A model generated the notes under the pieces. It was not told the origin of the DNA and ran no database searches. It saw only the letters and a program-made list of their open reading frames with translations. A stretch of 38,890 bases of DNA, taken from contig JAIXTS010000280.1 in NCBI GenBank assembly GCA_027483805.1, forward strand, positions 1 to 38,890, given 5' to 3'. Of the stretch, positions 24,451 to 38,890 are shown one piece after another. The translations under genes were made by a program, and so were the position numbers. How positions within the stretch are numbered: position 1 is the first letter of the stretch; each line of letters begins with the position of its first letter. The stretch comes from Azospirillum sp. GTDB lineage: Bacteria; Pseudomonadota; Alphaproteobacteria; Azospirillales; Azospirillaceae.

Positions 24451-24490
24451 CATCAAGCAGCCTAAAGCTTTACCTTTAGGCTGCTTGATG
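24451..24490. repeat. 17-bp perfect hairpin after the hydrolase operon
   Basis: CATCAAGCAGCCTAAAG (24451-24467) is repeated as its exact reverse complement at 24474-24490 with a 6-nt loop. It lies 17 bp past the operon's last stop. No T-run follows, so it may act as an mRNA 3'-end stabiliser, a weak terminator or a boundary element before the injection-system cluster. Confidence 0.8.
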
Positions 24491-24621: not shown

Positions 24622-24649
24622 TTGACAGACGGAAAATTTCTCATATTTT
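24622..24649 (+). promoter_or_regulatory. Predicted promoter of the eCIS cluster
   Basis: A perfect -35 TTGACA (24622-24627), a 16-bp spacer and -10 TATTTT (24644-24649) lie in an AT-rich stretch 53 bp before the first gene's ATG. This is the only clear promoter seen for the roughly 14-kb gene set that follows. Confidence 0.6.
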
Positions 24650-24662
24650 ATGACTAAGTCAT
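24650..24662. promoter_or_regulatory. Palindrome at the predicted eCIS start site
   Basis: ATGACTAAGTCAT is a perfect 6+1+6 inverted repeat that begins directly after the -10 and is centred near the expected +1. A regulator bound here would block transcription. No regulator gene lies beside it. Confidence 0.5.
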
Positions 24663-24701
24663 ATTACTCTGGTCATACGCGTTATGCGCCTTGGAGGGGA
24701 G

Positions 24702-25265
24702 ATGCTGGATCGGGCGCTGTCGTTTGTCAGAGACGCCCTCGACTCTCATTTGCAGAGAAGTCTCTCCTTGTCCGAGCCTGTGGCAGTCCTGAACCATCTT
24801 CATCATGCCGACAGCGGCAGCTCGCAGAAGAACCAAAACCGCCTGATAATGGCACTGATAAAAATAGAACAGGATTCTTCACGACAATATTATAATGCGC
24901 AATTGCAAAAAAACGCCACCATCAGTAAATTACCCCCTCAGTTTTTTAATATAAATGTACTTATGGCCGCTAATTTTGACGACTATCTTGAATCCTTAAA
25001 GGTTTTATCTCAGGTCATTTTGTTCTTTCAAGCAAACAGCAGCTTTCAGCGGGCATCATACCCAAACTTGCCCGAAGAATTGAACCTCCTGGAGATCGAG
25101 GTTGAGGCGACGCCCGACGTTAAATCATTCGAAATTTGGGGCGCGCTGGGCACAAGCTACGTGCCATCAATCATCTATAAGATTCGTCGTTTGATCGTGG
25201 ACTCCCACCAGATCGCTGGCTTCCAGACACCGCTGCGTCAACCGGTCACGGAGGTTGGGCAATGA
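24702..25265 (+). CDS. eCIS DUF4255 protein (Pvc16/Cis16-like)
   Basis: A 187-residue protein resembling the Pvc16 N-terminal/DUF4255 family, which caps or terminates the sheath-tube in PVC, Afp and MAC-type particles. It begins MLDRALSFVRDALDSHLQRS, has the middle NINVLMAANFDDYLESLKVLSQVILFFQANSSF and the late LPEELNLLEIEVE, with a C-terminal YVPSIIYKIRRLIVDS. The frame also offers an ATG at 24684, but GGAGG (24693-24697) serves the ATG at 24702. Its first half is much richer in A+T than the neighbours: 24841-24960 has 34% G+C by hand count. It overlaps the next gene as ATGA. Confidence 0.82.
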   Translation: MLDRALSFVRDALDSHLQRSLSLSEPVAVLNHLHHADSGSSQKNQNRLIMALIKIEQDSSRQYYNAQLQKNATISKLPPQFFNINVLMAANFDDYLESLKVLSQVILFFQANSSFQRASYPNLPEELNLLEIEVEATPDVKSFEIWGALGTSYVPSIIYKIRRLIVDSHQIAGFQTPLRQPVTEVGQ

Positions 25266-26071
25266 GCGAATGTCTTTTGCGGGTGCGGATCGACCACACC
25301 TGGTACGGGGATCAGCCGATCAGCGGAATCACCTTGTGTCCAGATGCGCAAACCGATGCCATCCTGCAGCGGTTCGACCTCTGGTGGCGATATGAGGGGG
25401 CGCAATGGTCACTGTACAGCGACCGGGTTGGCATGAGGGCAGCGCTGCTCGCCGGGCTTGCCCGGGAATTGGATAGCAGACCGCTCTGTATTCGCTTTGT
25501 CGGCAACCTGGACCATTTATCGTCAATCACGGCCCTGCCGCCGGGGTCTCGAACCGTGCCGCATTACAGCAGCCGGGCGGTCGATGCCGGCACGGGCGAG
25601 GATGCGGTGGACCTTGTCCTGAAACCGAAATCCGATGCGGCGGCCCCACCGGCGACCATCTGGCTGTACCCCGACGATGTGGCCCGGGCCGTGCCCGGCA
25701 CGACTTGGTGCATCCGGCTCGAGGCGGCCCGGTTGCCCTGGATTTACTTTGTGGTCAATCGCAGCCAGAACCCGCTGAACCAGCCATTCATACGTACATC
25801 CGACGGGCAGGTCCTTGCCGGGCCGGTGGAAACACAAATGCCTGACGGGGACACGGCCCTGCGCTTCGATACCGGAACACAGGCATGGGCCTTCAACCGG
25901 ACGCCAACGTTGCGGTTGGGTCTTTTCGACCGTTTCCGTTCTCCATTATCCGATCAGACGACGGAAATCTGCCTGATCCGCTCCATGCCCTTGCCGGCGT
26001 CAGGCGCCGTGCGGTGGGACGGGGATGGGCCGGACAGGCGGGTTAGCGCGGCGACCATAATCTATCTTTAA
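25262..26071 (+). CDS. Unrecognised protein in the eCIS cluster
   Basis: A 269-residue protein not assigned to a family. It has no signal peptide, no membrane segment and no catalytic motif that was recognised. The N-terminus (RVRIDHTWYGDQPISGITLCPDAQTD) and the alternation of short beta-type stretches suggest a mainly beta protein. Three short tryptophan-containing segments (FDLWWRYEG, TTWCIRLEAARLPWIYFV, TQAWAFNRTP) stand out. Its start overlaps the stop of the DUF4255 gene, and the sheath gene follows 74 bp later, so it is translated with the cap protein. A structural role (second cap or terminator, sheath adaptor) is the simplest guess; a cargo role cannot be excluded. Confidence 0.75.
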   Translation: MSECLLRVRIDHTWYGDQPISGITLCPDAQTDAILQRFDLWWRYEGAQWSLYSDRVGMRAALLAGLARELDSRPLCIRFVGNLDHLSSITALPPGSRTVPHYSSRAVDAGTGEDAVDLVLKPKSDAAAPPATIWLYPDDVARAVPGTTWCIRLEAARLPWIYFVVNRSQNPLNQPFIRTSDGQVLAGPVETQMPDGDTALRFDTGTQAWAFNRTPTLRLGLFDRFRSPLSDQTTEICLIRSMPLPASGAVRWDGDGPDRRVSAATIIYL

Positions 26072-26145
26072 CGCATCGTGACAGCGGGTTCCGGAAGGGA
26101 AACCTTCAAGCCCCCGCCCTCACCCCAGACAAGGAAGAGGCGATC

Positions 26146-27723
26146 TTGGCAACGTATTCGACACCAGGCGTTTACATCAACGAGGTCAACGCCTTTCCCA
26201 ACTCCGTGGTGCCCATTGCCACCGCCGTGCCCGTCTTCATCGGCTATACACCACGCGCCGATTATGAGGGTAAATCTTACTACAATAAACCGGTGCGCAT
26301 CACGTCTTTTGCGGAATACCAAGCTTACTTCACCCTGCCGAACCCGGCCCCACCTGCCGATCCAGTACGCCAGTATTCACCACAATATTATCTGGTAGCC
26401 CAGGATAAGGAGCCGGAGGTCGGTCCGCACCTGGGTATCGGTGGCAAGTTTTACTCAGTCCTTCCCGATCCGAACACCATTTACTATATGTATAATAGCA
26501 TCCGCCTGTTCTATCAGAATGGCGGCAGCGATGCCTGGATCATCTCGGTCGGCCCTTACGGCCCGCCCAGCGGCAAGCCGCTGGATGATGCCAAGACCCC
26601 TTTGGTCAATTCCAATGTAAAGCTGGGCGATTTTCAGCGCGCTCTGGAACTGCTGAAGATCGAACTGGAACCGACCATTTATGTCTGTCCGGAGGCCACG
26701 CTGCTGCCGGCGGCAGACAATGCCACCCTGACCCAGGGCATGCTGTTGCAAGCGCAGGAACTGCAGACCACCGTCTGCCTGTTCGACGTGATCAACGGTA
26801 ATCAGCCCGACCCGATCCAATATACCCAGGATATCGAGGCCTTCCGCAACGGGACAGGGACAAACGGGCTGAAATACGGGATCTGTTATTACCCGTTTAT
26901 TGGCACCACCATCATGCAAAGCGGGGAAATCGATTTCACCAACCTGTTCGCCGGGGATACCAAACAGTTGGCCCCGCTGCTGGACAGCCCCACCAGCCCC
27001 AATCCGGTGGCGGCGAAGATCATCGGTATGATCCAGAACCCGCCGGCCACCCCGCTGACCACCAGCCAATTGCATGGCGCCCTGCTCATCGCCAGCAAGA
27101 CTTACGGCCAGATCATCAAGCAAGTTACGAATGTAGCCAATTTGCTGCCCCCCAGCGGAGCAATGGCAGGGGTTTATACGGTGAATGACCAGACGGCAGG
27201 CGTCTGGAACAGCCCGGCCAATACCAGCATCGTTGGCGCCGCCAGCCTGCCCATCAAGCTGTCAGACAGCCAACAGGCCAATCTGAATGTCGATGCGGTC
27301 TCCGGCAAATCGATCAATGCCATCCGTTTCTTCAATGGTCAGGGCATTCTGGTCTGGGGGGCCCGCACGTTGGATGGCAACAGCCAGGATTGGCGGTACG
27401 TTTCTGTCCGGCGGACGATGATCTTCCTTGAACAGTCGGTGAAGCTGGCGGCCCGCGCCTATGTATTCGCGCCCAACAACGCCAATACCTGGGCCGCTGT
27501 AAAAAGCATGATCTCCAGCTTCCTGACAGATGTCTGGAAACAAGGCGGCTTGCAGGGTGCCAAGCCTGACGACGCCTTCTCCGTCGCGGTTGGCCTGGGC
27601 ACAACCATGACCGCAGAGGATTTGTTGAACGGCTATATGCGGGTCACGGTCCTGGTCTGCGTCGTCCGGCCGGCCGAATTTATCGAAATCACCTTCCAGC
27701 AGCAGATGGCCAAGTCCGGCTAA
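26146..27723 (+). CDS. eCIS contractile sheath protein
   Basis: A 525-residue sheath subunit that polymerises around the tube and contracts. The N-terminus YSTPGVYINEV...TAVPVFIGYT is the signature of eCIS and phage sheaths. The C-terminal domain has INAIRFFNGQGILVWGARTL, WRYVSVRRTMIFLEQS, YVFAPNNANTWAAV and a terminal RPAEFIEITFQQQ. It probably starts at TTG (26146), 5 bp after AAGGAAGAGG, because the next Met codons fall inside the conserved fold. Only one sheath gene is present here, whereas Afp and PVC have three. The tube gene follows 46 bp later. Confidence 0.95.
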   Translation: MATYSTPGVYINEVNAFPNSVVPIATAVPVFIGYTPRADYEGKSYYNKPVRITSFAEYQAYFTLPNPAPPADPVRQYSPQYYLVAQDKEPEVGPHLGIGGKFYSVLPDPNTIYYMYNSIRLFYQNGGSDAWIISVGPYGPPSGKPLDDAKTPLVNSNVKLGDFQRALELLKIELEPTIYVCPEATLLPAADNATLTQGMLLQAQELQTTVCLFDVINGNQPDPIQYTQDIEAFRNGTGTNGLKYGICYYPFIGTTIMQSGEIDFTNLFAGDTKQLAPLLDSPTSPNPVAAKIIGMIQNPPATPLTTSQLHGALLIASKTYGQIIKQVTNVANLLPPSGAMAGVYTVNDQTAGVWNSPANTSIVGAASLPIKLSDSQQANLNVDAVSGKSINAIRFFNGQGILVWGARTLDGNSQDWRYVSVRRTMIFLEQSVKLAARAYVFAPNNANTWAAVKSMISSFLTDVWKQGGLQGAKPDDAFSVAVGLGTTMTAEDLLNGYMRVTVLVCVVRPAEFIEITFQQQMAKSG

Positions 27724-27769
27724 GCCCAGGTGGCGCCCCCATTCCCTTCCGAATTAGAGAGGTATGATC

Positions 27770-28228
27770 ATGGCCGGTGAAGTTGAAGACAATGTATGGC
27801 CGTTGCCAAAGTTCCGATTCGAAGTGGATTTCGGTTCAGAACTGAAAGGAATTGCCTTCCAGGAAGTGTCTGGCATGGATGCCGAAGTCCAGATCATCGA
27901 ATACCGCCACAGCAACAGCCCGCTTTTTTCAGCGATCAAAATGCCGGGCATCGCGAAATACAGCAATGTCACGATGAAGCGTGGCGTGTTCGTCAATGAC
28001 AACACGTTCTGGAATTGGCTGAACGAAATCAAGATGAACACCATCAAGCGGCGCACGGTCTTGATCAAGCTGCTGGATGAAAGTGGCAAGGTCACCATGC
28101 TCTGGACCTTGAACAATGCCTGGCCGACCAAAGTGACCAGCACCGACCTGAAGTCGGACGGCAACGAGGTGGCGGTGGATACGATCGAAATTGCGCATGA
28201 ACAGATCGTGGTCACCAACGGGGGATAA
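27770..28228 (+). CDS. eCIS inner tube protein 1 (Pvc1/Hcp-like)
   Basis: A 152-residue phage T4-like tail-tube/Hcp-fold protein that forms the rings of the inner tube. Typical features are WPLPKFRFEVDFG, IAFQEVSGMDAEVQIIEYRHSNSP, KMPGIAKYSNVTMKRGVF and NAWPTKVTSTDLKSDGNEVAVDTIEIAHE. The ATG at 27770 was preferred over the one at 27764 because GAGAGG ends at 27762, too close to the first. It is the second structural gene after the sheath, as in most eCIS loci. Confidence 0.94.
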   Translation: MAGEVEDNVWPLPKFRFEVDFGSELKGIAFQEVSGMDAEVQIIEYRHSNSPLFSAIKMPGIAKYSNVTMKRGVFVNDNTFWNWLNEIKMNTIKRRTVLIKLLDESGKVTMLWTLNNAWPTKVTSTDLKSDGNEVAVDTIEIAHEQIVVTNGG

Positions 28229-28231
28229 CCG

Positions 28232-28711
28232 ATGCCCGGTTTGCTCTCGGCCTTGACGGATTATGTGACCTCGCTGAACGAACTTCAGCCCAGCTTCTAT
28301 TTCGGGGTCAGCGTTCTGCCTTTTGCGCTGGATGCGGCCTTCCAGGAAGTATCGGGCCTGTCCAAGCAGATGGAGGTCGAAGAGGTGGTAAGCGGAGGGG
28401 AAAACCGCTTCGCCTACCGGCTTCCAGGCCGGGTAAAATACGAGAATTTGGTGCTGCGCCGTGGTGTGGCGATCAGCGGTGCGGCCTTTTCGATCTGGTG
28501 CGCTTCTGTACTGGACAGCGACTTCGCCACGCCGGTGACAACCATGGATGTGCTGGTGACACTTTACAACCACCAGCACATGCCGACCATGGCGTGGAAT
28601 GTCATCGGCGCTTATCCGGTGAAATGGAGCATGAGCGACCTGAAATCCCAGGAAAATGCGCTGCTGATCGAAACCATCGAACTGGCCTATCGCCGTTACG
28701 TGCTGGTGTAG
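28232..28711 (+). CDS. eCIS tube protein 2 (Pvc5/Cis5-like, tube-baseplate)
   Basis: A 159-residue paralogue of the main tube protein, with the same FQEVSGL, LPGRVKYENLVLRRGVAISGAAF and NVIGAYPVKWSMSDLKSQENALLIETIELAYRRY elements. In characterised particles the second tube protein forms the first ring(s) joining the tube to the spike and baseplate. It begins 3 bp after the first tube gene and probably shares its mRNA and translation. Confidence 0.92.
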   Translation: MPGLLSALTDYVTSLNELQPSFYFGVSVLPFALDAAFQEVSGLSKQMEVEEVVSGGENRFAYRLPGRVKYENLVLRRGVAISGAAFSIWCASVLDSDFATPVTTMDVLVTLYNHQHMPTMAWNVIGAYPVKWSMSDLKSQENALLIETIELAYRRYVLV

Positions 28712-28724
28712 GCAGGAGCATCAT

Positions 28725-28895
28725 ATGCCGGTCGAGATACGCGAACTGGTCATCAAGACCACATTGGAGAGCGGCGTTACGGACCGACAGGATCGGGAGA
28801 GGAAGGCCGATCTTCAGGCCTTGCGTCGTACGCTGCTGCAGGAATGTGAACGCATGCTGCGCGACACCCAGGGCCGCAAGCGTTTCGACCGGTAG
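28725..28895 (+). CDS. Small DUF5908 eCIS protein (Pvc6-like)
   Basis: A 56-residue protein, MPVEIRELVIKTTLESG, then a helical charged segment with RRTLLQECERMLRD. The opening matches the DUF5908 family, found almost only in eCIS clusters between the tube and LysM genes. A clear GGAG lies at 28715-28718 before the ATG. The exact role is unknown; position and size suggest a small baseplate or assembly factor. Confidence 0.85.
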   Translation: MPVEIRELVIKTTLESGVTDRQDRERKADLQALRRTLLQECERMLRDTQGRKRFDR

Positions 28896-28904
28896 GAACA
28901 ATCC

Positions 28905-29582
28905 ATGCCCAACCTGACCATCACCGGCTATAGTGACGAAAAGTTCAGCAGCAAGGCAGCCGCGCCCAACCAGTATGTGGCGATGCTCAACCCGTCCAGC
29001 ATCGATCTGGGGCGCGGGGTGGACTATAGCGAGGACAGCAGCGGCACCTCTGCCGCCTCACCAAAATTCAAGCAGTTGCCCAGTGAAACCCTGAGTTTTG
29101 AGTTGACTATCGACTGTACCGGCGTGGTCGATGACACGCGTGTCGACCTTAAGACGGAGTTGGAAACGCTATCGGCGGTGATCCGCGACTACAAGAGCGA
29201 TACCCACCGGCCCAATTATGTCACCGTGGTTTGGGGCGACACGCTGAATTTCAAGGGTGTGCTGACCAATATGAGTGTCAATTACACCTTCTTCAAACCC
29301 AATGGCGGCGCGCTGCGGGCCAAGGTGAAACTGGACTTCCGCTCCTATGTGGATGCGGCCACCCTGGCCAAGCAGCAGAACCAGCAATCACCCGATGTGA
29401 CCCACCATATCCTGGTGCGTGACGGTGACAGCCTGCCGCTGATCGCGCAGACGGTCTATCGCCGCCCGGACTTCTTCGTGGCCCTCGCCAAGGCCAATCG
29501 CCTGGACAAGTTCCGGCACCTGCAGGGCGGCACCACCCTGTTGACCCCGCCGCTGAAGTCCGGGGAGGCGTCCCATGGCTGA
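28905..29582 (+). CDS. eCIS LysM baseplate protein (Pvc7/gp53-like)
   Basis: A 225-residue protein with an N-terminal domain (about 1-150: QYVAMLNPSSIDLGRGVDYSEDSS, SFELTIDCTGVV, VVWGDTLNFKGVLTNMSVNYTFF) and a C-terminal LysM domain (about 167-217: HHILVRDGDSLPLIAQTVY, ALAKANRLDKFRHLQGGTTLLTP). In eCIS and phage baseplates this protein links the tube adaptor to the spike hub and baseplate ring. It starts 9 bp after the DUF5908 gene and overlaps the spike gene by 8 bp. Confidence 0.92.
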   Translation: MPNLTITGYSDEKFSSKAAAPNQYVAMLNPSSIDLGRGVDYSEDSSGTSAASPKFKQLPSETLSFELTIDCTGVVDDTRVDLKTELETLSAVIRDYKSDTHRPNYVTVVWGDTLNFKGVLTNMSVNYTFFKPNGGALRAKVKLDFRSYVDAATLAKQQNQQSPDVTHHILVRDGDSLPLIAQTVYRRPDFFVALAKANRLDKFRHLQGGTTLLTPPLKSGEASHG

Positions 29583-31359
29583 CGCCACGGATGGCGGCCT
29601 CGCATCCTTCACAATCACCGTGAACGGCACTGCCATTCCCACCGAATATCAGGTCGTGTCCATCGAGATCGAGCAATCGGCCAATCGCATCGCACGGGCC
29701 AGCATCGTGCTGCCGGACGGGGATGCCTCGACCCAGGATTTCGCCATCAGCGGCGCGGACACCTTCGTTCCGGGCGCCGCGATCAGCATTCAGCTGGGCT
29801 ATGACAACACCAATAAAGAGGTGTTTTCCGGCATCATCACCGGCCAGCGCCTGTCCCTGGCCGTGAGTTCCGGCTCCAGCCTGGAGGTGGAGTGCCGTGA
29901 CAAGGCCGTTCTGCTGACGGTGGGCCGGAAATCATCGGCCTATGCGTCATCGAAGGATAGCGATGCCATATCGGCTATCCTGTCCAATGCCGGCCTGACC
30001 GCCGATGTCGCGGCCACCACGCCGCAGCAGGAGGCGCTGATCCAGTATGACAGCAGCGACTGGGATTTCATCGTCACCCGTGCGGAAATCAACGGCTTGC
30101 TGGTGCTGACCCAGAATGGAACCGTCAAGGTTTTTGATCCCCTGGACCAAAGCGACCCGTCCGTTACCATCACCCAGGGCATTGACCTGTTTGGCTTCGA
30201 GGGCACATTGGACGCCATCGGTCAGCTGGATCAGGTCACCGCCAATGCCTGGGACCCGGGCACCCTGGACCTCATCAACGCGACGGCCAGCGCCAGCTTT
30301 GCCGGACCGGGAAACTTGACCACCAAGAAGCTGGCCGGTGACATGGGCCAGGGGACCGTCAGCCTGCAAACGGCCGGAACGGAAACGAATGACGGGCTGA
30401 CCGGTTGGGCCAAGGCGCAGGTCGCGAAAAGCACCCTGGCCAAGATCGTAGCCACCGCCACCATCCAGGGGCGGTCGGACCTGACGCCGGGACAGACCGT
30501 GACGCTCGCCGGATTGGGGGCCCGGTTCAACGGTACGCATCTGATCACCGGGATGCGCCACCGCCTGCGCGAGGGCAACTGGACCAGCGATTTGCTGCTG
30601 GGGTTTGAACGCCAATGGTTCGTGCAGGAGCATGATGTCAGCACACCGCCGGCGGCGGGCCTGTTGCCCGGTATCGGCGGACTATTCTGCGGTACGGTCC
30701 TGAAGATCGACAGTGATCCCGACAATGGTTTCCGCATCCAGGTGGAAATTGCCCATTTCAACGACAGCAATGCTGGAATCTGGGCGCGCATGGCGCATTT
30801 CCACGCCACCGACGGGGCCGGTGCCTTTTTCCTGCCCGAGGTCGGGGACGAGGTGCTGGTGGGTTTCCTCAATGCCGATCCGCGTTTCCCGGTGATCCTG
30901 GGCAGCCTGTACAGCAAGAACCGCAAGCCCAACAGCGCCCTGACCCCGGATTCAACAAACAGCCATAAGGCACTCTACACAAAGGCCGGTTCGTTCCTTG
31001 ATTTCAACGACGAAGACAAGATCATCACCCTGTCCACGCCGGGTGGCAACAAACTGGTCCTGGATGACAAGAACGGTCAGATCCAGCTGGTCGATCAGAA
31101 CGGCAACAGCATCCAGATGGACAGCAGCGCCATTGCCCTGAAAAGCGCCGCCGCCCTGAATGCCCAAGCAGCGACGACCATGTCGCTGAAAGGCGACAGC
31201 GGGATCACCGCCGAAAGCAGCGGCGGCGATGTCAGTATCACCGGCACCAACGTTTCCGTGACCGCCAATGCCCAATTGACTGCCAAAGGTAGCGCCAGCG
31301 CCGAGATCCAGGGCGGGGCACAGCTCACGCTCAAGGGCGGCATGGTCATGATCAACTGA
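29575..31359 (+). CDS. eCIS spike/hub protein (VgrG/gp27-gp5-like, Pvc8)
   Basis: A 594-residue central spike. Residues 1-360 form the gp27-like hub; LVLTQNGTVKVFDPL and LTPGQTVTLAGLGARFNGTHLITGMRHR are typical. Residues about 365-448 form the OB-fold (FCGTVLKIDSDPDNGFRIQV, MAHFHATDGAGAFFLPEVGDEVLVGF, FPVILGSLY). The tail is a gp5/VgrG-like repeat region forming the beta-helical needle (ITLSTPGGNKLVLDDKNGQI, then short alternating repeats to VMIN). No extra C-terminal effector domain is present. A PAAR tip gene follows 12 bp downstream. Confidence 0.95.
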   Translation: MADATDGGLASFTITVNGTAIPTEYQVVSIEIEQSANRIARASIVLPDGDASTQDFAISGADTFVPGAAISIQLGYDNTNKEVFSGIITGQRLSLAVSSGSSLEVECRDKAVLLTVGRKSSAYASSKDSDAISAILSNAGLTADVAATTPQQEALIQYDSSDWDFIVTRAEINGLLVLTQNGTVKVFDPLDQSDPSVTITQGIDLFGFEGTLDAIGQLDQVTANAWDPGTLDLINATASASFAGPGNLTTKKLAGDMGQGTVSLQTAGTETNDGLTGWAKAQVAKSTLAKIVATATIQGRSDLTPGQTVTLAGLGARFNGTHLITGMRHRLREGNWTSDLLLGFERQWFVQEHDVSTPPAAGLLPGIGGLFCGTVLKIDSDPDNGFRIQVEIAHFNDSNAGIWARMAHFHATDGAGAFFLPEVGDEVLVGFLNADPRFPVILGSLYSKNRKPNSALTPDSTNSHKALYTKAGSFLDFNDEDKIITLSTPGGNKLVLDDKNGQIQLVDQNGNSIQMDSSAIALKSAAALNAQAATTMSLKGDSGITAESSGGDVSITGTNVSVTANAQLTAKGSASAEIQGGAQLTLKGGMVMIN

Positions 31360-31371
31360 AGGACCTGTCCC

Positions 31372-31668
31372 ATGCCGCCTGCCGCTCGCCTTGGCGACTT
31401 TCATCAGTGCCCGATGGTCACGCCCGGCCTGCCGCCCATACCGCATGTGGGGGGGCCAATCTCGCTGGGAGCGCCCACCGTCCTGATCTGCAATATGCCG
31501 GCGGCCCGGGTCGGCGATATGGCGGTATGTGTCGGCCCGCCGGACAGCATCGTCAAAGGGTCGGCCACCGTCATGATTACCAGCATGCCAGCTGCCCGCA
31601 TGGGGGATACGACGGCCCATGGCGGTACCATCGCGCTGGGCGCTCCCACTGTCATGATCGGGGGATGA
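31372..31668 (+). CDS. PAAR-type spike tip protein (Pvc10-like)
   Basis: A 98-residue protein of duplicated PAAR-type segments: PPAARLGDFHQC, then NMPAARVGDMAVC and SMPAARMGDTTAHGG, each followed by a GAPTV- or GSATV-type turn. Histidines and cysteines that could bind the tip metal are visible (H11, C13, H25, C53, H83). It sharpens the spike and can carry cargo, but no extension is fused here. Its stop overlaps the next start as ATGA. Confidence 0.93.
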   Translation: MPPAARLGDFHQCPMVTPGLPPIPHVGGPISLGAPTVLICNMPAARVGDMAVCVGPPDSIVKGSATVMITSMPAARMGDTTAHGGTIALGAPTVMIGG

Positions 31669-32105
31669 ACATGGGCCACGACGCTCCTTTCCTCGGACGG
31701 GGCTGGACCTTCCCGCCCGTCTTCAATGCCGCCGATGCCAGCCTGAGCATGGTGGCCGGCGTCGAGAATATCGCCCAATCCCTGAACCTGCTGCTGGCCA
31801 CCCTTCAGGGCAGCCGCGCCCTGCTGCCCGATTTCGGCAGCAACCTGAACCAGTTTGTGTTCCGGCGCAGCGATGCCCAGACACTGGAGGAACTGGCCGA
31901 GGCGGCACGTTTCATTCTGTTGCACGGCGAGCCCCGCATCGTTGTGGAGGATGTGAGATCACAGGCCAGCGCCGATGGCAGCCTGATGCAGCTGGTGATC
32001 GCCTACCGCGTGACCCAGACCAATACCCGGCACAACCATGTCTATCCGTTCGCATCCTTGGAAGGGTCCAATCTGGCGCCGCCGCCCAAGGCCGGGATTG
32101 TCTGA
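31665..32105 (+). CDS. Baseplate gp25-like protein (Pvc9)
   Basis: A 146-residue GPW/gp25-family protein that nucleates the sheath at the baseplate. Motifs include LGRGWTFPPVFNA, VENIAQSLNLLLATLQGSRALLPDFGSNLNQFVF and the late EPRIVVEDVRSQ. The frame is open far upstream, but the ATG at 31665 overlaps the PAAR stop; the ATG at 31671 is nearly as good. The next gene starts 3 bp after its stop. Confidence 0.93.
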   Translation: MNMGHDAPFLGRGWTFPPVFNAADASLSMVAGVENIAQSLNLLLATLQGSRALLPDFGSNLNQFVFRRSDAQTLEELAEAARFILLHGEPRIVVEDVRSQASADGSLMQLVIAYRVTQTNTRHNHVYPFASLEGSNLAPPPKAGIV

Positions 32106-32108
32106 TCC

Positions 32109-35100
32109 ATGACCGCTTCGCCGCTCACACCGCTTCTTGCATCCTTGGACCCGGCCACCGCACCGCTGGACGGCAAGAGCGCGCGTGACCGCCTGGCGTT
32201 TGTTGCCCGCTTTGCCCGGTTGGTGCGGTTCTACACCATCAACAATGACGAACAGGGGACGTGGCAACCCTTCATGCTGAAGGACGCGGCCATTCTGCTG
32301 GCCACTATTGCGGCCACCGACTATAGCGACCTTAACGCACACTATCAGGCCCTGAACGCCCCCCCGCACGGTTCAGACCATCCACGTCCGGCACAGATCC
32401 AGGCAATTTTGCGCCTGTTGCGGCACATGGTCTCGACCCTTGCCCATTGGTTGTCCTGGCTTGAATGGCAACCGGACGATTTTCCCCTGCGCAGTTTCCT
32501 GGCGCGAGAGGTCCAGCAAACCCTGGCCCCTGGCTTGGCAAAGGTCCGCACCCTGCACGATGCACTGGCACAGCAAGACTGGATTGATGCGCCGGACGCC
32601 GCCTGGTTCGCCAACCTGGGGCCTGCTTGGCGGGTGGTGGGACGGGCCGACCCCAGCCTGCATCTGGCCGATGGCCATTCTGAACATGCCCTGAGCCAGG
32701 CAATGGCGGAACTGCGCCACATGTACCTGGATACGCTGAATGTGATCATCCAGACGGTGGATGCCGCCGCCCAGCATTATGAAATCGTCGCCGCCCAGAC
32801 CACGCCCCACCCCGACACGGCCCTGCTGCGTGTGTTTGTCGATTTGATGGGGCATCAGCAGAAGGTGCTAAACAAGATCAGCGGCCGTCATCTGGATTTC
32901 TATTACCGCGATATCCTGCATATGGAGCCCCGCCCGGCACAGCCCGATACGGTGGTGGTCATCGCAACCCCACAGACCGACCAGCCAATCGAGATCATCC
33001 CCGCCGGCACCCGCTTCGCTGCCGGCAAGGATGCGGCCGGCAAGCCCATCTTCTTCGCCAACCCTGAAACAGCGGTGATCAACCAGGGCCGTATCGCCGC
33101 GGGCTTCAGCCTGAAGTCCGACAGGGGCAGCGCTGATTTCAATCCGGGCATCCATGCCGCCGCCCTGGCCGATCTGACGATGATCCAGCGTGATACGTCC
33201 GGCCACCCGATCGATCAATTGCTGTTCGCCCGCCCTGATCCCCGACCACAGGGCCTGGGTTTTTCGCTCGCCAGTCCCATGCTGCTGATGGAATCCGGCG
33301 CACGGTCGATCATTCTGACCCTGGAACTGAATGGCAACGCTGTTGAACCACCGGTGAACTGGGAGGGGGGGTGGCGCAGCTGGATGACCACGGCCAAGGG
33401 CTGGTTCGAAGCCGGGGCCTATGCTTTCCCGCCGCATTATACCGCCCCTGCCGATGGCAAACCCGGCCTTCTGGTGCTGGAATGGATGTTGCCAGCCGAG
33501 GCGCCAGCACTACAGGCGGCCGCCAAGCCGCTGGACGGCCAGGATACCCCCTGGCCACAAATCAAGATGGCGCTGCCTCCCCTGGCCAGCGCCCATCCCT
33601 GGCCGCGGATCGGCGCCATCAACCTGGAGGTCAAGGCACGCGACGTCACCAATCTGACCTTGTGGAGCACGCAAGCACCCCTGTCGCCTGCCGCCCCCTA
33701 TCCGCTGGGTCCGATGCCACAGATCGGCAGCCGCTTCCTGATCGGCAGCCGGGAAATGTTCGCCAAGCCGATCAGCCGGATCACACTGACCCTGGATTGG
33801 GCCGCGATGCCAGCCGATCTGGGGAGCTGGTACCAGGAGTATAACGCCTGGCAGGCGGCCCAGCGCCCCGATCTCCCGGCCATCCGGAACGATACGGTCC
33901 GCGGCCGCTGGCATTGGCGGGAGCCCGATGGCTGGAAATCCGCCATCCTCACCCCGCCGGCGGGATCGCCACCGGATACTCTTTTTCAAGGCAATGGCCG
34001 CAGCGTCTTCTCCTTCCAGCTACCAGACCAGCGGCCCTTGCCCTGGCTGGCGAAGGCGATCAGTCTTACCGATCCATCCACGGCCCTGGGTGGCTATCTG
34101 GCCTTTACGCTGGAACAGCCAATTCAGGCCTTCGGTCACCAGATTTACCCACAGGTCCTGATCTGGACCAGTCAGCAACAGGCACAATCCCTGATCCAGT
34201 CGGCACAGGGCACCACCGGAGTGGCGGCGCCCCCAGGTACCCCAAACCCGCCCTTCACACCAACCTTGAAGGCGGCCAGTATCGACTACAGCGCCCAATG
34301 CCGGCTGGTGCCGGGCGCGGATGCAGGCGTCACCGATCCAGCCTGCCCCCTGGAATGGCGACATTACGGTCCGTGGCATACCTGGCTGGCGTGGCGTAGT
34401 GGCGGACCGTTGCCACGGCATGCGCCCCTGGCCCCCGGTTTGGCGGAGGCGGGCCTGACGCTGGTTCCACGGATCGCAGCGGAAGGCTGTCTGATGCTGG
34501 CGGTCGCGGATTTACCGGCGCCCTGCACTTTGCGCCTGTTTGCGGCCGTCACGGATGACGGCGATGCCACCGGCTTTGAGGTATGGCGCTATGGTCGGTC
34601 GGGCTGGATACCGGTTGAGATCTGGCACGATGATACCGCCGGCCTTTCGGCATCAGGCATTATGGAACTATCCCTGCCCGATCCGCCAGACGCCCTTCCG
34701 CTATCGCCCGTGCTGGCTGAATGTGCCTGGCTGGCCGTTACACCGAAGGGGGCTTGGCGCTCCCTCTCCGTCGCACTTCTGTCACCGCAGCCGATTCTGC
34801 TGACGCGTCAGGATGTGGCCGCCGACGCGCCCGCAGTGCCCGCCATTGCCCCCGGCACCATCAACAAGCCGCCCAACCCCACCCTGGCCGCCATACGCCA
34901 ACCGTTGGGGTCGCATGGAGGACGGGGCGCGGAAACGGTCGAGGGGTTCGCGGGCACCAATAACTTCCACCGCCGGGTCGCGCTGCGCCTTGCCCACAAA
35001 GGTCGCGCCCTGGCCGCACGCGATTATGTGCTGCTGGCGCATGAATTCATGCCGGACCTGTTCCATGCAGAGATGCTGCCCAGCGCCGGTCCGGCACGGG

Positions 35101-35597
35101 GCGAGGTCCGGTTGGGTGTGGTACCGCGCATGGCCAACCCATCGGTCACAGGCGCTTTTCGCCCGCGTATCAGTCCCGGCGCTCGTGTCGCTCTCGCAGC
35201 GCAGCTGCAGGCTTGCAGCGCTGACACGGCGACCATCTCCGTCCACAATATGGCCGCAAGCGAGGTGGAACTGTCGGCCAGCCTGATCGTCTCGCAAGAG
35301 GCGTTGGCCGCCTGGCCATCGTTGCGGAAGAACTGGAACCTGGCTCTGCGCCTTTACCTCTCTCCATGGATCAACAGCGATCAGCCCCGTTACGACCTGC
35401 GTCTCGGTCTTGGGCGGGCGGATATTCTGCGCCGTATCGCGTTATTCCCCGGTGTCTTTGCGATTGAAGACCTGGGCGTCACCCTGACAGGCCCCGATGG
35501 CACCAGAAAGGATTGCCACGACGATCGTATCGTGGCGCCGCCCGGCCATCTCTGGGTCTCCGCCAACGAACACCAACTGACTGTGGCGGCGGGGTGA
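32109..35597 (+). CDS. Large gpJ-like baseplate wedge protein (Pvc11)
   Basis: A 1162-residue baseplate component of the 'putative baseplate assembly' family that forms the wedges around the spike. Recognisable regions are the N-terminal RDRLAFVARFARLVRFYTINN, the central LLRVFVDLMGHQQKVLNKISGRHLDFYYRDILHM and DTVVVIATPQTDQPIEIIPAGTRFAAGKDAAGKPIFF (typical of gpJ-like domains). It lies between gp25 and Cis12 genes, the standard eCIS order, with a 3-bp gap after the gp25 stop and a 2-bp gap to the next ATG. It has no signal peptide. Confidence 0.9.
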   Translation: MTASPLTPLLASLDPATAPLDGKSARDRLAFVARFARLVRFYTINNDEQGTWQPFMLKDAAILLATIAATDYSDLNAHYQALNAPPHGSDHPRPAQIQAILRLLRHMVSTLAHWLSWLEWQPDDFPLRSFLAREVQQTLAPGLAKVRTLHDALAQQDWIDAPDAAWFANLGPAWRVVGRADPSLHLADGHSEHALSQAMAELRHMYLDTLNVIIQTVDAAAQHYEIVAAQTTPHPDTALLRVFVDLMGHQQKVLNKISGRHLDFYYRDILHMEPRPAQPDTVVVIATPQTDQPIEIIPAGTRFAAGKDAAGKPIFFANPETAVINQGRIAAGFSLKSDRGSADFNPGIHAAALADLTMIQRDTSGHPIDQLLFARPDPRPQGLGFSLASPMLLMESGARSIILTLELNGNAVEPPVNWEGGWRSWMTTAKGWFEAGAYAFPPHYTAPADGKPGLLVLEWMLPAEAPALQAAAKPLDGQDTPWPQIKMALPPLASAHPWPRIGAINLEVKARDVTNLTLWSTQAPLSPAAPYPLGPMPQIGSRFLIGSREMFAKPISRITLTLDWAAMPADLGSWYQEYNAWQAAQRPDLPAIRNDTVRGRWHWREPDGWKSAILTPPAGSPPDTLFQGNGRSVFSFQLPDQRPLPWLAKAISLTDPSTALGGYLAFTLEQPIQAFGHQIYPQVLIWTSQQQAQSLIQSAQGTTGVAAPPGTPNPPFTPTLKAASIDYSAQCRLVPGADAGVTDPACPLEWRHYGPWHTWLAWRSGGPLPRHAPLAPGLAEAGLTLVPRIAAEGCLMLAVADLPAPCTLRLFAAVTDDGDATGFEVWRYGRSGWIPVEIWHDDTAGLSASGIMELSLPDPPDALPLSPVLAECAWLAVTPKGAWRSLSVALLSPQPILLTRQDVAADAPAVPAIAPGTINKPPNPTLAAIRQPLGSHGGRGAETVEGFAGTNNFHRRVALRLAHKGRALAARDYVLLAHEFMPDLFHAEMLPSAGPARGEVRLGVVPRMANPSVTGAFRPRISPGARVALAAQLQACSADTATISVHNMAASEVELSASLIVSQEALAAWPSLRKNWNLALRLYLSPWINSDQPRYDLRLGLGRADILRRIALFPGVFAIEDLGVTLTGPDGTRKDCHDDRIVAPPGHLWVSANEHQLTVAAG

Positions 35598-35599
35598 CC

Positions 35600-38221
35600 A
35601 TGGGCGATTTCGTCATTCTCAACAAGCCACCCGATGCCGCCGAAAACCCTTACTGGCTGAAATCGCAGGGTATCCAGGCGCTGCAGCATTTGGTTGGCGA
35701 TGTATGGAGCCTTTACAACGATGTCGATCCCGGCGTTACCTTGCTGGAGCATCTTTGCTGGGCCCTGTCGGAGGTCGCCTACTGTGCGGGATTTCCGCTT
35801 GAGGACCTGCTGACCGGCGCCAATGGCGAATTGGTCGTTCCCGACCAGTTTCCTGACCAGACCGATATCCTGTCCCATCAACCGGTCAGTACCGACGATT
35901 ATGGCAAGGGGTTGCTCGACAGGTTGAAGGGCTTGCGGGCCATGCAGATCCTGTCCGAACGGGATATGAACGGGCACCCGACCGGACGGCAAATCTGCTA
36001 TCTGGCGCCACAGCCGCAACTGGACGACACGGCCAACGGCCAACTGGCGCAATCGGCCTGGCATTATCTGCGGGCATGGCGGCTGCCCGGCCACGATGTT
36101 TTGCCGCCCCGCTGGCTCAGCCAGCGTTCACTTTCGATAAGTGCGACCATTCTTCTGACAGATGCCCGCCTGGCCGATGAGGTGGCCGATGCCTGCTCGC
36201 TGGCGCTGGACCGCATGGTGGCACCGATCCCACAACGGGGCGGCTACCAGAACTGGCGAGATCAAGGGCTGGATGGGGCTGCGATCATCAATGGGCCGCG
36301 TCTGCAACGCGGTTGGATGCCGGGCATGCTGCCACCCCTGCCGGATGCTGTCCGGATCAGCACACTGGCTGGCCTGCTGGCTGGTGTGCCAGGCGTCCAG
36401 GCCGTGCTGTCCCTGCGACTGATGGCCGACGGGACCGAGGTGAAACACCTGGCCCTGGCGGAGCACGAGATTATTGCCTGGGTCCTTGATCTGGAATTCT
36501 GGGCAGACAACCGCCGTTGCCTGCATTACCGGGGACCATCGCGGTCGGCCGGTGTCGCCGGCATGAAGTCGGCCCATGCCGCCAAGGGAATCGCTGCGGG
36601 CATTGATCTGTCGGCACCGGTGCCGAAGGGACATTTCCGCAATCTGGCGGAATACCACCCGGTCCAGATGACCCTGCCGCCCAACTGGGGCCTGACGGGC
36701 CGGGAAGTGGAACGCACCGGGCTTCAGCAGGCGCATGCGCGCCAGCTTCAAGGCTATCTGATGCCGTTCGAGCAGCTGCTGACCAACCAGTTCGCGCAAC
36801 TGGCCAATCTGGGCCTTTTATTTTCCCCCCGGCGTCCGCCGCCCCTGGATCGTGGCGACCGTCCCGACGATGTGCCCTGGCAGCCCCTGGCGCGGACCAG
36901 CTTCAGCCAACCCCTGTACCAGATACCGGACATCCAGGACCTGGTGGCAGGCCAGGATATCTTCGATGATTGGCTGGGGGAGCCGCGGCCGGAGGACAGT
37001 TGGCAGCAGGTGCAGCGTTTCTCCCACAATGCCTATCGCCATACCCTGGCCACCCAGACAGAGGGTGAGCAGGAGGCGGTGGTCAACCGCGTCGCCATGC
37101 TGCGCCATCTCCTGGCCCGCCATGGGGAGGATGCAGGCGACCATGATCCCATGATCCTGGCCTTCCAATGGTATGGAAGCCGCGAACGGACCCTGATGAT
37201 CGTCCATGCGCTCTGGCTGCAAAATATCAGCTTCCTGTCCTATGCACGCTGCTGCGCGGCCCGGTATCCAGCGCCCGCCCTGCTGCTGCCCGGCGATCCG
37301 GGGATACCGGAGGAGGATGAGCGTTTCCGCGCGCGGCTGGCACCGCAGACAGGCTTCGCCGGTAAGGCCAACGACACGCCCTGGTGGCGGCGGCTGCGCG
37401 CCTGGCCCGATTTCAACGGCCGCCCTGATCTGGCGCGGATCGAGGCCTTGGCGGGACTCGATGAAAAGTCGCTGGAAGGGATCAGCAGCTTCGAATTGAA
37501 ACTGGGGCTGATCTTGGATCTTCCCACCTATCTGGGAACCCTGGCCGCCGCGCTTTCACGGGCGCTTTATGCACCCGGCGCGCGCCAATGGCTGGGCAGC
37601 GGCAGCCATCCCGGCATGCGGTTCGAAGTGCCCGACAGTGATCTTTTCCTGTTCGCCACCCATAACGGCGTCTTTTTGTACGAAGGCCGCCAGCAAGGCG
37701 CCCCCGAACCGGACAGTGCCCTGCTTTATATCCGGTGGGATGTGCCGGGCCACCGCTCCGGTTGGCCCGATGCCTGGCATATGGCGGGCAGTGGCGGTTT
37801 TGCGGCCCCCGTGGGTACGGAAAGCGACGAACGGTTCCTCACCTGCCACGCCCATGTTCTGCAATTGCTGTGGCTGGCCACGCAGCGTAGGGGTGTCCTG
37901 CTGCTGGAGCCGGTGCTGCTGGTCCCCGATGGCCAGATGCCGGACGCGGCCAAACGTCTGGCCGCCTGCCTGTTCTGGCCAGACTGGGTACCGCATCTGG
38001 CCCGCCATTTGCCAACCTTCATCGAAACCATGCGGCAGCGCCATTGGCCGTCGCATGTGGTTCTGGATGCGCGCGGACTGCCATTTGACCGTATGGCACC
38101 CCTGATCCCGGCCTTTGTGGACTGGCAAAATCTCTATGGACAGGCCGATGCAAATCCTTCCGTCCTGAACAGGCTTGCGAACATCCTGGCATCACACCTG
38201 GCCGCGGCGAGGTCTCCATGA
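35600..38221 (+). CDS. Pvc12/Cis12-like baseplate protein
   Basis: An 873-residue protein taking the place of Pvc12/Afp12, the second large wedge protein. The N-terminus DPGVTLLEHLCWALSEVAYCAGFPLEDLL is the typical opening of this family (baseplate J-like), followed by QTDILSHQPVSTDDYGKGLLDRL. The open frame reaches back to 35513, inside the preceding gene, but the ATG at 35600 lies 2 bp after the previous stop and starts the conserved part. It overlaps the tape-measure gene as ATGA. The C-terminal half has little that was recognised. Confidence 0.85.
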   Translation: MGDFVILNKPPDAAENPYWLKSQGIQALQHLVGDVWSLYNDVDPGVTLLEHLCWALSEVAYCAGFPLEDLLTGANGELVVPDQFPDQTDILSHQPVSTDDYGKGLLDRLKGLRAMQILSERDMNGHPTGRQICYLAPQPQLDDTANGQLAQSAWHYLRAWRLPGHDVLPPRWLSQRSLSISATILLTDARLADEVADACSLALDRMVAPIPQRGGYQNWRDQGLDGAAIINGPRLQRGWMPGMLPPLPDAVRISTLAGLLAGVPGVQAVLSLRLMADGTEVKHLALAEHEIIAWVLDLEFWADNRRCLHYRGPSRSAGVAGMKSAHAAKGIAAGIDLSAPVPKGHFRNLAEYHPVQMTLPPNWGLTGREVERTGLQQAHARQLQGYLMPFEQLLTNQFAQLANLGLLFSPRRPPPLDRGDRPDDVPWQPLARTSFSQPLYQIPDIQDLVAGQDIFDDWLGEPRPEDSWQQVQRFSHNAYRHTLATQTEGEQEAVVNRVAMLRHLLARHGEDAGDHDPMILAFQWYGSRERTLMIVHALWLQNISFLSYARCCAARYPAPALLLPGDPGIPEEDERFRARLAPQTGFAGKANDTPWWRRLRAWPDFNGRPDLARIEALAGLDEKSLEGISSFELKLGLILDLPTYLGTLAAALSRALYAPGARQWLGSGSHPGMRFEVPDSDLFLFATHNGVFLYEGRQQGAPEPDSALLYIRWDVPGHRSGWPDAWHMAGSGGFAAPVGTESDERFLTCHAHVLQLLWLATQRRGVLLLEPVLLVPDGQMPDAAKRLAACLFWPDWVPHLARHLPTFIETMRQRHWPSHVVLDARGLPFDRMAPLIPAFVDWQNLYGQADANPSVLNRLANILASHLAAARSP

Positions 38222-38890
38222 TCCCCGCAGCATCTTCACCGACCCATCTTGTGGCACGCCTTGTCTGGGAAACTGCTTATGACAGGCCGCCAAACGTTAA
38301 GGAGCAGCAAGACTGGCTTTCGGACTTCTCACACGAATTGCTGCCGGATCTGCTGGGTGAGGTTTTTGACCGCTGCTGTCCGCCCGGCCAAACCTGGCGC
38401 TGTGACCGGCTGGAGGTTGATCTCGGCACGATCCAGATGTCGCGGGCCGACCATGAACTTCCGCAAAGGCTTGCGCGCGAGTTGGCCAGCGCCCTGTGGC
38501 GACGGTTCGGCACCATCACCGATGCATCAATGGCGTCCACCCTGGCCGCCAGGTCGGCGACCGGAATGGGACATGACAATCCAATCGGCGCGGACGTCAA
38601 CGGGCAGGCCGATGACATCACCTTGCCCTTGCTGGAACATCTTCTGCTGCACGGTACTTTACCCTGGTGGCAGAAACAGCCGGCACCGTTCCTCTCGTTA
38701 TGGACCGTCGCGCTGGAACTGCATGCACAGGCATTGCTGACCTTGCTGCGCCGCACGGCGGTACAAGAAAATGTCCGTATCCGGCTGGTTTGGCTGCTGG
38801 GACAGACAAGACTGCCGGCCCTGGTCAAGCTGGCCGATCCAACCCACGCCGATGCGCTGGTGCAATGGGTTAGCGATCTGGTTGACCGCC
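38218..38890 (+). CDS. eCIS tape-measure protein (CIS_TMP, Pvc14-like), 5' part
   Basis: The first 224 codons of a protein cut by the window edge. CRCDRL-type spacing ends in LEVDLG (65-70), and the signature L-L-H-G-T-L-P-W-W is at 143-151. Both are hallmarks of the contractile-injection-system tape-measure family, which sets particle length. It starts at an ATG overlapping the previous stop, so the operon clearly continues to the right. The protein's full length, and hence the particle length, cannot be judged here. Confidence 0.85.
   Translation, partial: MIPAASSPTHLVARLVWETAYDRPPNVKEQQDWLSDFSHELLPDLLGEVFDRCCPPGQTWRCDRLEVDLGTIQMSRADHELPQRLARELASALWRRFGTITDASMASTLAARSATGMGHDNPIGADVNGQADDITLPLLEHLLLHGTLPWWQKQPAPFLSLWTVALELHAQALLTLLRRTAVQENVRIRLVWLLGQTRLPALVKLADPTHADALVQWVSDLVDR

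What the first reader, a model, noticed from the sequence alone, without database searches (positions are those of the whole stretch)
24622..38890. Extracellular contractile injection system in a probable alphaproteobacterium
Thirteen tightly packed plus-strand genes encode a near-complete PVC/Afp/MAC-like particle: DUF4255 cap, sheath, two tube proteins, DUF5908, LysM, spike, PAAR, gp25, gpJ-like, Cis12-like and tape measure. The DUF5908, DUF4255 and CIS_TMP proteins are eCIS-specific, which separates this from a T6SS or R-type pyocin. The ATPase, fibre and cargo genes are not yet visible. eCIS in this kind of carbohydrate-scavenging bacterium are little characterised, so target and cargo are open.
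Basis: partly seen in the sequence, partly recalled or inferred. Interest (0 to 1): 0.85.

Follow-up and report, generated by a model that had tools for sequence, protein, structure and literature searches.

The report
Injection-particle genes in a Niveispirillum bacterium
The stretch holds thirteen genes for a phage-tail-like syringe particle that bacteria use to inject proteins into other cells; most of the remaining genes lie on other pieces of the same draft genome, so it is a known kind of machine in a bacterial group where it is rare, with some conserved genes of unknown role.

Summary
Confirmed: thirteen plus-strand genes (24,684-38,890) encode an extracellular contractile injection system (eCIS), cut by the contig end inside the tape-measure gene. 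Most of the rest is in the same draft genome: contig C468 has the tape-measure C-terminus, C130 an AAA+ ATPase and a DUF4157 (eCIS_core) protein. No tail fibre was recognised. The host is a Niveispirillum (Azospirillaceae); N. lacus has the same locus, sheath 94% identical. The unnamed gene 25,262-26,071 is a cap adaptor. Two coiled-coil genes without a family (cc1, cc2) lie between tape measure and ATPase in 17 of 17 relatives picked for having cc1. Next to them, Niveispirillum has a lysozyme inhibitor and a lectin-like gene where 15 of those 17 have another conserved gene, X; a muramidase (GH108) cassette follows. Lectin, cc2 and close GH108 copies occur only in the 3 of 11 genus genomes with this eCIS. 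CIS tape-measure genes are rare in Alphaproteobacteria (3 of 385 sampled genomes over cut-off). Verdict: a new member of a known kind with a lineage-specific accessory set. Side finding: lone sheath genes without other eCIS genes nearby.

The parts
24451..24490 (.). perfect 17-nt inverted repeat between the upstream deacetylase gene and the cluster; possible transcription boundary, but no run of T follows
   Evidence: role inferred
24684..25265 (+). cap / tail terminator (Cis16, Alg16A-like)
   Evidence: PF14065 Pvc16_N 79 bits, cut-off 27
25262..26071 (+). cap adaptor (Cis16b, Alg16B-like), no Pfam, NCBIfam or PHROGs family
   Evidence: profile of 24 homologues matches SalCis16b 1.7e-14, All3326 7.7e-5, AlgoCIS cap adaptor 0.0036 (alignment A1); the single sequence alone found nothing significant; no family
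26146..27723 (+). contractile sheath (Cis2)
   Evidence: PF17482 47 bits, cut-off 26.9; solved sheaths 9r9h 2.6e-117, AlgoCIS 9.9e-85
27764..28228 (+). inner tube protein 1
   Evidence: PF06841 152 bits
28232..28711 (+). inner tube protein 2
   Evidence: PF06841 133 bits
28725..28895 (+). DUF5908 (Cis6)
   Evidence: PF19265 44 bits
28905..29582 (+). CIS_tube hub protein (Cis7)
   Evidence: PF19266 141 bits
29575..31359 (+). VgrG-like spike (Cis8)
   Evidence: PF04717 71 bits and PF05954 38 bits
31372..31668 (+). PAAR tip
   Evidence: PF05488 82 bits
31665..32105 (+). gp25 baseplate wedge
   Evidence: PF04965 58 bits
32109..35597 (+). baseplate J-like Cis11, long form (1162 aa)
   Evidence: All3317 1.6e-36, Alg11 1.1e-25, SalCIS entry 9rce 1.8e-25
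35594..38221 (+). baseplate wedge Cis12
   Evidence: Alg12 2e-21, Afp12 5.4e-17, Pvc12 1.1e-16
38218..38890 (+). tape-measure protein (Cis14), N-terminal part, cut by contig end; C-terminal part on contig C468
   Evidence: PF19268 79 bits here, 204 bits on C468

Best explanation
The genes make an eCIS of the kind with a cap adaptor and a long Cis11, as in AlgoCIS and the Anabaena tCIS. Shown by sequence: cap, cap adaptor, sheath, two tube proteins, hub, spike, PAAR tip, wedge proteins and AAA+ ATPase as intact frames, and both ends of the tape measure (about 0.6 kb of its middle is not assembled). Inferred from known eCIS: the particle is assembled in the cytoplasm, freed by lysis of the producer, binds a target, and the contracting sheath drives tube and spike through its envelope, releasing cargo. 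Inferred with less certainty for this lineage: cc1 and cc2 help load or hold the lumen content; the DUF4157 protein is a cargo adaptor or cargo; the lectin-like protein, probably co-transcribed with the ATPase, is a sugar-binding particle component or cargo; the GH108 muramidase with its membrane protein serves release or is an antibacterial cargo, and the LprI-type lysozyme inhibitor inside the cluster protects the producer.
For: Domain and solved-structure matches for the structural parts. ATPase 80% identical to the N. lacus copy (E 1.1e-255), with Walker A motif; DUF4157 with HExxH. C468 and C130 overlap exactly by 119 nt. Same gene order in N. lacus and G004, at sites without collinear flanks. 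Order tape measure, cc1, cc2, ATPase, DUF4157 in 17 of 17 relatives picked by cc1. Lectin, cc2 and close GH108 copies only in the 3 of 11 genus genomes with this eCIS. No structural protein reaches 1.6 on a 19-residue hydropathy window, while the 525-aa cassette protein reaches 2.68; spike, Cis12, cc1, cc2 and ATPase come near, 1.53-1.57.
Against: No recognisable tail fibre. The C330-C468 junction rests on comparison with N. lacus and G004, without overlap. cc1 and cc2 have no family and no telling fold match. Ricin-B matches of the lectin are below Pfam cut-off and it has no significant PDB match. The 525-aa membrane protein has no Pfam family above cut-off. DUF4157 also occurs in 3 genus genomes without a CIS_TMP match (G003, G007, G012), so alone it does not mark an eCIS. 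No expression or particle data.
Confidence: 0.88

Rival explanations
1. An intracellular or membrane-anchored CIS (like Streptomyces CIS, tCIS or T6SS-iv) rather than a released particle.
For: No tail fibre found; the thylakoid-anchored tCIS is among the closest solved relatives (sheath, cap adaptor, Cis11); loci without fibre candidates might act inside the cell (PMC12923769, passages).
Against: No clear transmembrane segment in the structural proteins seen; a muramidase cassette with a multi-TM protein lies next door in 3 of 3 genomes with this locus.
Confidence: 0.15
2. An R-type tailocin or a defective prophage.
For: An endolysin-like gene (phrog_315, E 7.6e-31) is nearby; sheath, tube 1 and spike also match phage tail families.
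Against: Pvc16_N, DUF5908, CIS_tube and CIS_TMP matches; AAA+ ATPase and DUF4157 present; no head, portal or integrase family among the 18 flanking ORFs scanned.
Confidence: 0.03
3. The GH108 cassette and LprI are unrelated neighbours, not part of the system.
For: They are on the opposite strand; no match to them in the 14-16 kb stretches of 16 relatives nor in the Massilia stretches searched.
Against: In 3 of 3 Niveispirillum genomes with this eCIS they lie at the same place in the block although the block sits at different sites, and close GH108 copies are missing from the other 8 of 11 genomes.
Confidence: 0.3

Closest known systems
Niveispirillum lacus locus, NZ_NOXU01000023 (L081, L098-L100)
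   Same: same genes in the same order; sheath 94%, tube 98%, spike 90%, ATPase 81% identical
   Different: carries an additional gene with a weak nuclease match (PF13930, E 0.0011, below cut-off) between cc2 and LprI, absent from the own and G004 stretches
AlgoCIS of Algoriphagus machipongonensis (PMC8894135)
   Same: cap plus cap adaptor, long Cis11, Cis12
SalCIS, PDB 9r9h/9r9n/9rce (no paper found)
   Same: closest solved sheath and cap adaptor
   Different: source organism and accessory genes not seen
Massilia solisilvae, Rheinheimera soli, Pseudomonas graminis loci (L004, L006, L010)
   Same: sheath 71-76%; cc1, cc2, ATPase, DUF4157 in the same order
   Different: gene X instead of LprI and lectin; no GH108 match in the stretches held
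PVC / Afp
   Same: shared core parts
   Different: three sheath proteins each (Pvc2-4, Afp2-4) against one sheath match in this genome; fibre Afp13/Pvc13 not recognised here

Membership tests
eCIS | sheath, tube, spike, PAAR, gp25, Cis11, Cis12 in one cluster | tested here: met
eCIS | eCIS-type cap (Pvc16_N), DUF5908, CIS_TMP | tested here: met
eCIS | AAA+ ATPase (Cis15) in the cluster | tested here: met
   on contig C130 of the same genome, joined by overlap and synteny
eCIS | no phage head genes, no TssJ/L/M next to the cluster | tested here: met
   18 flanking ORFs scanned; short ORFs and the rest of the genome not scanned
eCIS | tail fibre | tested here: inconclusive
   no Pvc13-like gene recognised; cc1 or the lectin could serve
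eCIS | release as free particles | not testable with these tools
   needs microscopy
AlgoCIS-like clade Ib | cap adaptor protein | tested here: met
AlgoCIS-like clade Ib | spike-cage extension of Cis11 | tested here: inconclusive
   length 1162 aa against Alg11 1050, Pvc11 728, Afp11 607; fold not predicted
AlgoCIS-like clade Ib | sheath inside the AlgoCIS/MACs clade | not tested

The most novel reading that the evidence does not exclude
cc1 and cc2 are an undescribed two-gene core module of this eCIS branch that loads or scaffolds the tube lumen, and Niveispirillum has exchanged the next slot (gene X) for a lectin plus a periplasmic lysozyme inhibitor that acts as immunity against a particle-borne or release muramidase, making a self-protected antibacterial particle.
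Probability: 0.25. Interest if true: 0.65.

Novelty: new member of a known kind. Interest (0 to 1): 0.42.

Why it matters
It places a nearly complete eCIS in an alphaproteobacterial genus with cultured species, in a class where such loci are rare; in 3 of the 11 genus genomes it is the same block at different sites. It points to conserved unassigned genes (cc1, cc2, X) that studies of this eCIS branch must account for, and gives a testable muramidase-inhibitor pair.

Tried and rejected
T6SS and tailocin readings were rejected on gene content. The thought that gene X is gasdermin-like (from its look) had no support in Pfam (four members scanned), PDB sequences or the five papers listed. cc1 and cc2 as alpha-pore toxins or fibres: fold searches gave mostly generic coiled coils, with low-ranked Tc and AhlB matches in the PDB and, for cc1, weak phage tail and tail-fibre matches in the viral library (best E 7.5e-5, TM-score to the query 0.25); none decides. 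The cc1 model is poor (pLDDT 69, residues 401-440 and 459-547 under 50). The one other class-level genome over cut-off (G245) shares only the tape-measure C-terminus with our proteins, on a 13-kb contig. Rfam and tRNA scans of the window were empty. Papers seen: PMC8894135 (passages, section 13), PMC13314943 (outline, sections 8 and 35), PMC8213781 (outline, passages, sections 7 and 10), and passages only of PMC6748791, PMC12210884, PMC10598620, PMC12923769, PMC11297309; all others only as listings. No paper linking Niveispirillum to eCIS appeared in the rows listed (20 of 21 and 10 of 841 papers listed).

Full report
Observation. The window is the whole contig C330 of a draft genome, 5.19 Mb in 543 contigs, 92.9% complete. 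From 24,684 to the end it holds thirteen close-packed plus-strand genes. Ten match eCIS or tail families above Pfam cut-offs. The two long genes match solved Cis11 and Cis12 baseplate proteins. The remaining gene, 25,262-26,071, has no Pfam family, nor has any of the 24 members of its alignment. Alone it found nothing significant in the PDB, but the profile of the 24, all lying before a sheath gene, matches the solved cap adaptors of SalCIS, of the Anabaena tCIS and, weakly, of AlgoCIS. AlgoCIS particles without their cap adaptor are misassembled and their lumen empty (PMC8894135, passages).

The rest of the locus. The tape-measure gene is cut at residue 224. Its C-terminal part is on contig C468, followed by cc1. 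The C468 end overlaps the reverse complement of C130 by 119 identical bases. C130 then holds the end of cc1, cc2, an LprI-type lysozyme inhibitor gene on the other strand, a 172-aa lectin-like ORF whose end overlaps the ATPase ORF by 28 bases if the first start is used, the AAA+ ATPase, and a 145-aa DUF4157 protein with HExxH. On the opposite strand follow a 525-aa protein with several hydrophobic segments, a 178-aa protein with a sub-threshold DUF2589 match, a GH108 muramidase and a DUF6623 protein with a twin-arginine-like start. By comparison with N. lacus and G004 about 0.6 kb of tape-measure gene is missing between C330 and C468. DUF4157 occurs once in this genome; it occurs in 8 of 11 genus genomes, three of which (G003, G007, G012) have no CIS_TMP match.

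Host and spread. The same contig appears as a genome of the window's own genus. A CIS_TMP match occurs in 5 of the 40 genomes searched around the window, own included, all five among the 11 genus genomes. Three (own, N. lacus, G004) share this locus. G005 and G011 hold a distant one with 37% sheath identity and no cap-adaptor, cc1 or cc2 match in the stretches held, though each has an ORF of about 400 aa at the cap-adaptor place. In a class sample 4 of 385 genomes matched, 3 over cut-off, two of these in the genus. In a sheath tree of 84 rows the three Niveispirillum rows form one branch (SH-aLRT 91) near the base of a group otherwise of beta- and gammaproteobacterial and Bacteroidota rows; this fits horizontal gain but does not prove it. 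The flanks of the three loci show no collinear match at the junctions; homologues of halogenase, cytochrome and TPR genes occur further out in other arrangements.

Conserved genes without a name. cc1 was found in 18 of 28 relative genomes, one of them weakly. In 16 of these whose stretches I fetched, plus Massilia, which I already held, the order tape measure, cc1, cc2, ATPase, DUF4157 holds in 17 of 17; they were picked by cc1, so only partners and order are informative. Among the 28, cap adaptor near the sheath and cc1 in the genome agree in 26 (17 both, 9 neither; one each way otherwise), but eight of the nine are lone sheaths without other core genes. Gene X lies between cc2 and ATPase in 15 of 17; Dickeya and Kosakonia lack it and have a longer cc2. 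Neither cc1, cc2 nor X has a match over cut-off in Pfam or NCBIfam, nor one at E<=0.001 in PHROGs (one to four members of each scanned per library). Models: cc2 three helices, pLDDT 86, pTM 0.56; cc1 a helical hairpin followed by a beta-rich part, pLDDT 69. Fold matches do not decide a role.

Niveispirillum's own set. X has no match in the own, N. lacus or G004 stretches. The lectin-like gene is 89-90% and GH108 87-91% identical to the own copy in the other two genomes, more than the ATPase (81-83%). In 11 genus genomes lectin and cc2 occur in 3, the carriers of this eCIS; close GH108 in the same 3, with distant ones (25-29%) in four genomes, one of them G004, itself a carrier. N. lacus has one more gene, with a sub-threshold nuclease match, not present in the own and G004 stretches; a homologue in Rheinheimera sits between two DUF4157 genes. 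This fits a variable cargo slot.

How it works. Assembly, contraction and puncture are taken from known eCIS. Release by the muramidase cassette, immunity by LprI, and the roles of cc1, cc2, lectin and DUF4157 are inference. DUF4157 has been suggested to be an effector chaperone in cis or trans (PMC11297309, passages), and in MACs a separate protein, JF50_12605, is needed for Mif1 to associate with the particle (PMC6748791, passages); whether it is related to cc1 or cc2 was not tested.

Verdict. The machine is known; the host lineage, the conserved unnamed genes and the lineage-specific accessory set are the new details.

Noticed in passing
L009, L021, L022, L024, L035, L042, L046, L047, L048, L053, L056, L065, L069, L071, L072, L075, L083: Sheath genes 60-73% identical to the window's, most 520-545 aa, without a match to other eCIS core genes in the held flanks (ten window proteins by phmmer, E<=1e-3; the tape measure matched in no locus, so nine are informative). 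22 of 80 loci have none; the 17 listed have at least 2 kb before and 8 kb after. L024 is shifted or disrupted in the matched range; L072 has a cap-adaptor profile match. At least 13 changes of this state on the sheath tree; dN/dS about 0.17 for the one pair in the same setting (L042/L065), against 0.03 for a linked pair. cc1 is missing from the 8 of these genomes searched whole. A lone, kept sheath is unexplained; other CIS loci elsewhere in these genomes were not excluded. None of the 15 of 65 papers listed holds 'orphan', 'standalone' or 'solitary sheath'.
   Followed up: partly
L150:6839-7678 and 14 other loci (alignment A6): Gene X, 280-310 aa where read to its stop (13 of 15), conserved between cc2 and the ATPase in 15 of 17 relatives; no Pfam match over cut-off in four scanned, no PDB sequence match to the profile.
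   Followed up: partly
L104-L105 (G005) and L106-L107 (G011): A second, distant eCIS type in two other Niveispirillum genomes, sheath 37% identical.
   Followed up: partly
window 1-24,434: Sugar-use neighbourhood: LacI regulators, two tryptophan halogenases, TonB receptors, GH3, ROK kinase, alpha-amylase family, RoxA-like cytochrome, isochorismatase-like and two polysaccharide deacetylase genes.
   Followed up: no
L150:10331-11227: Rheinheimera homologue of the N. lacus nuclease-like gene, between two DUF4157 genes.
   Followed up: no
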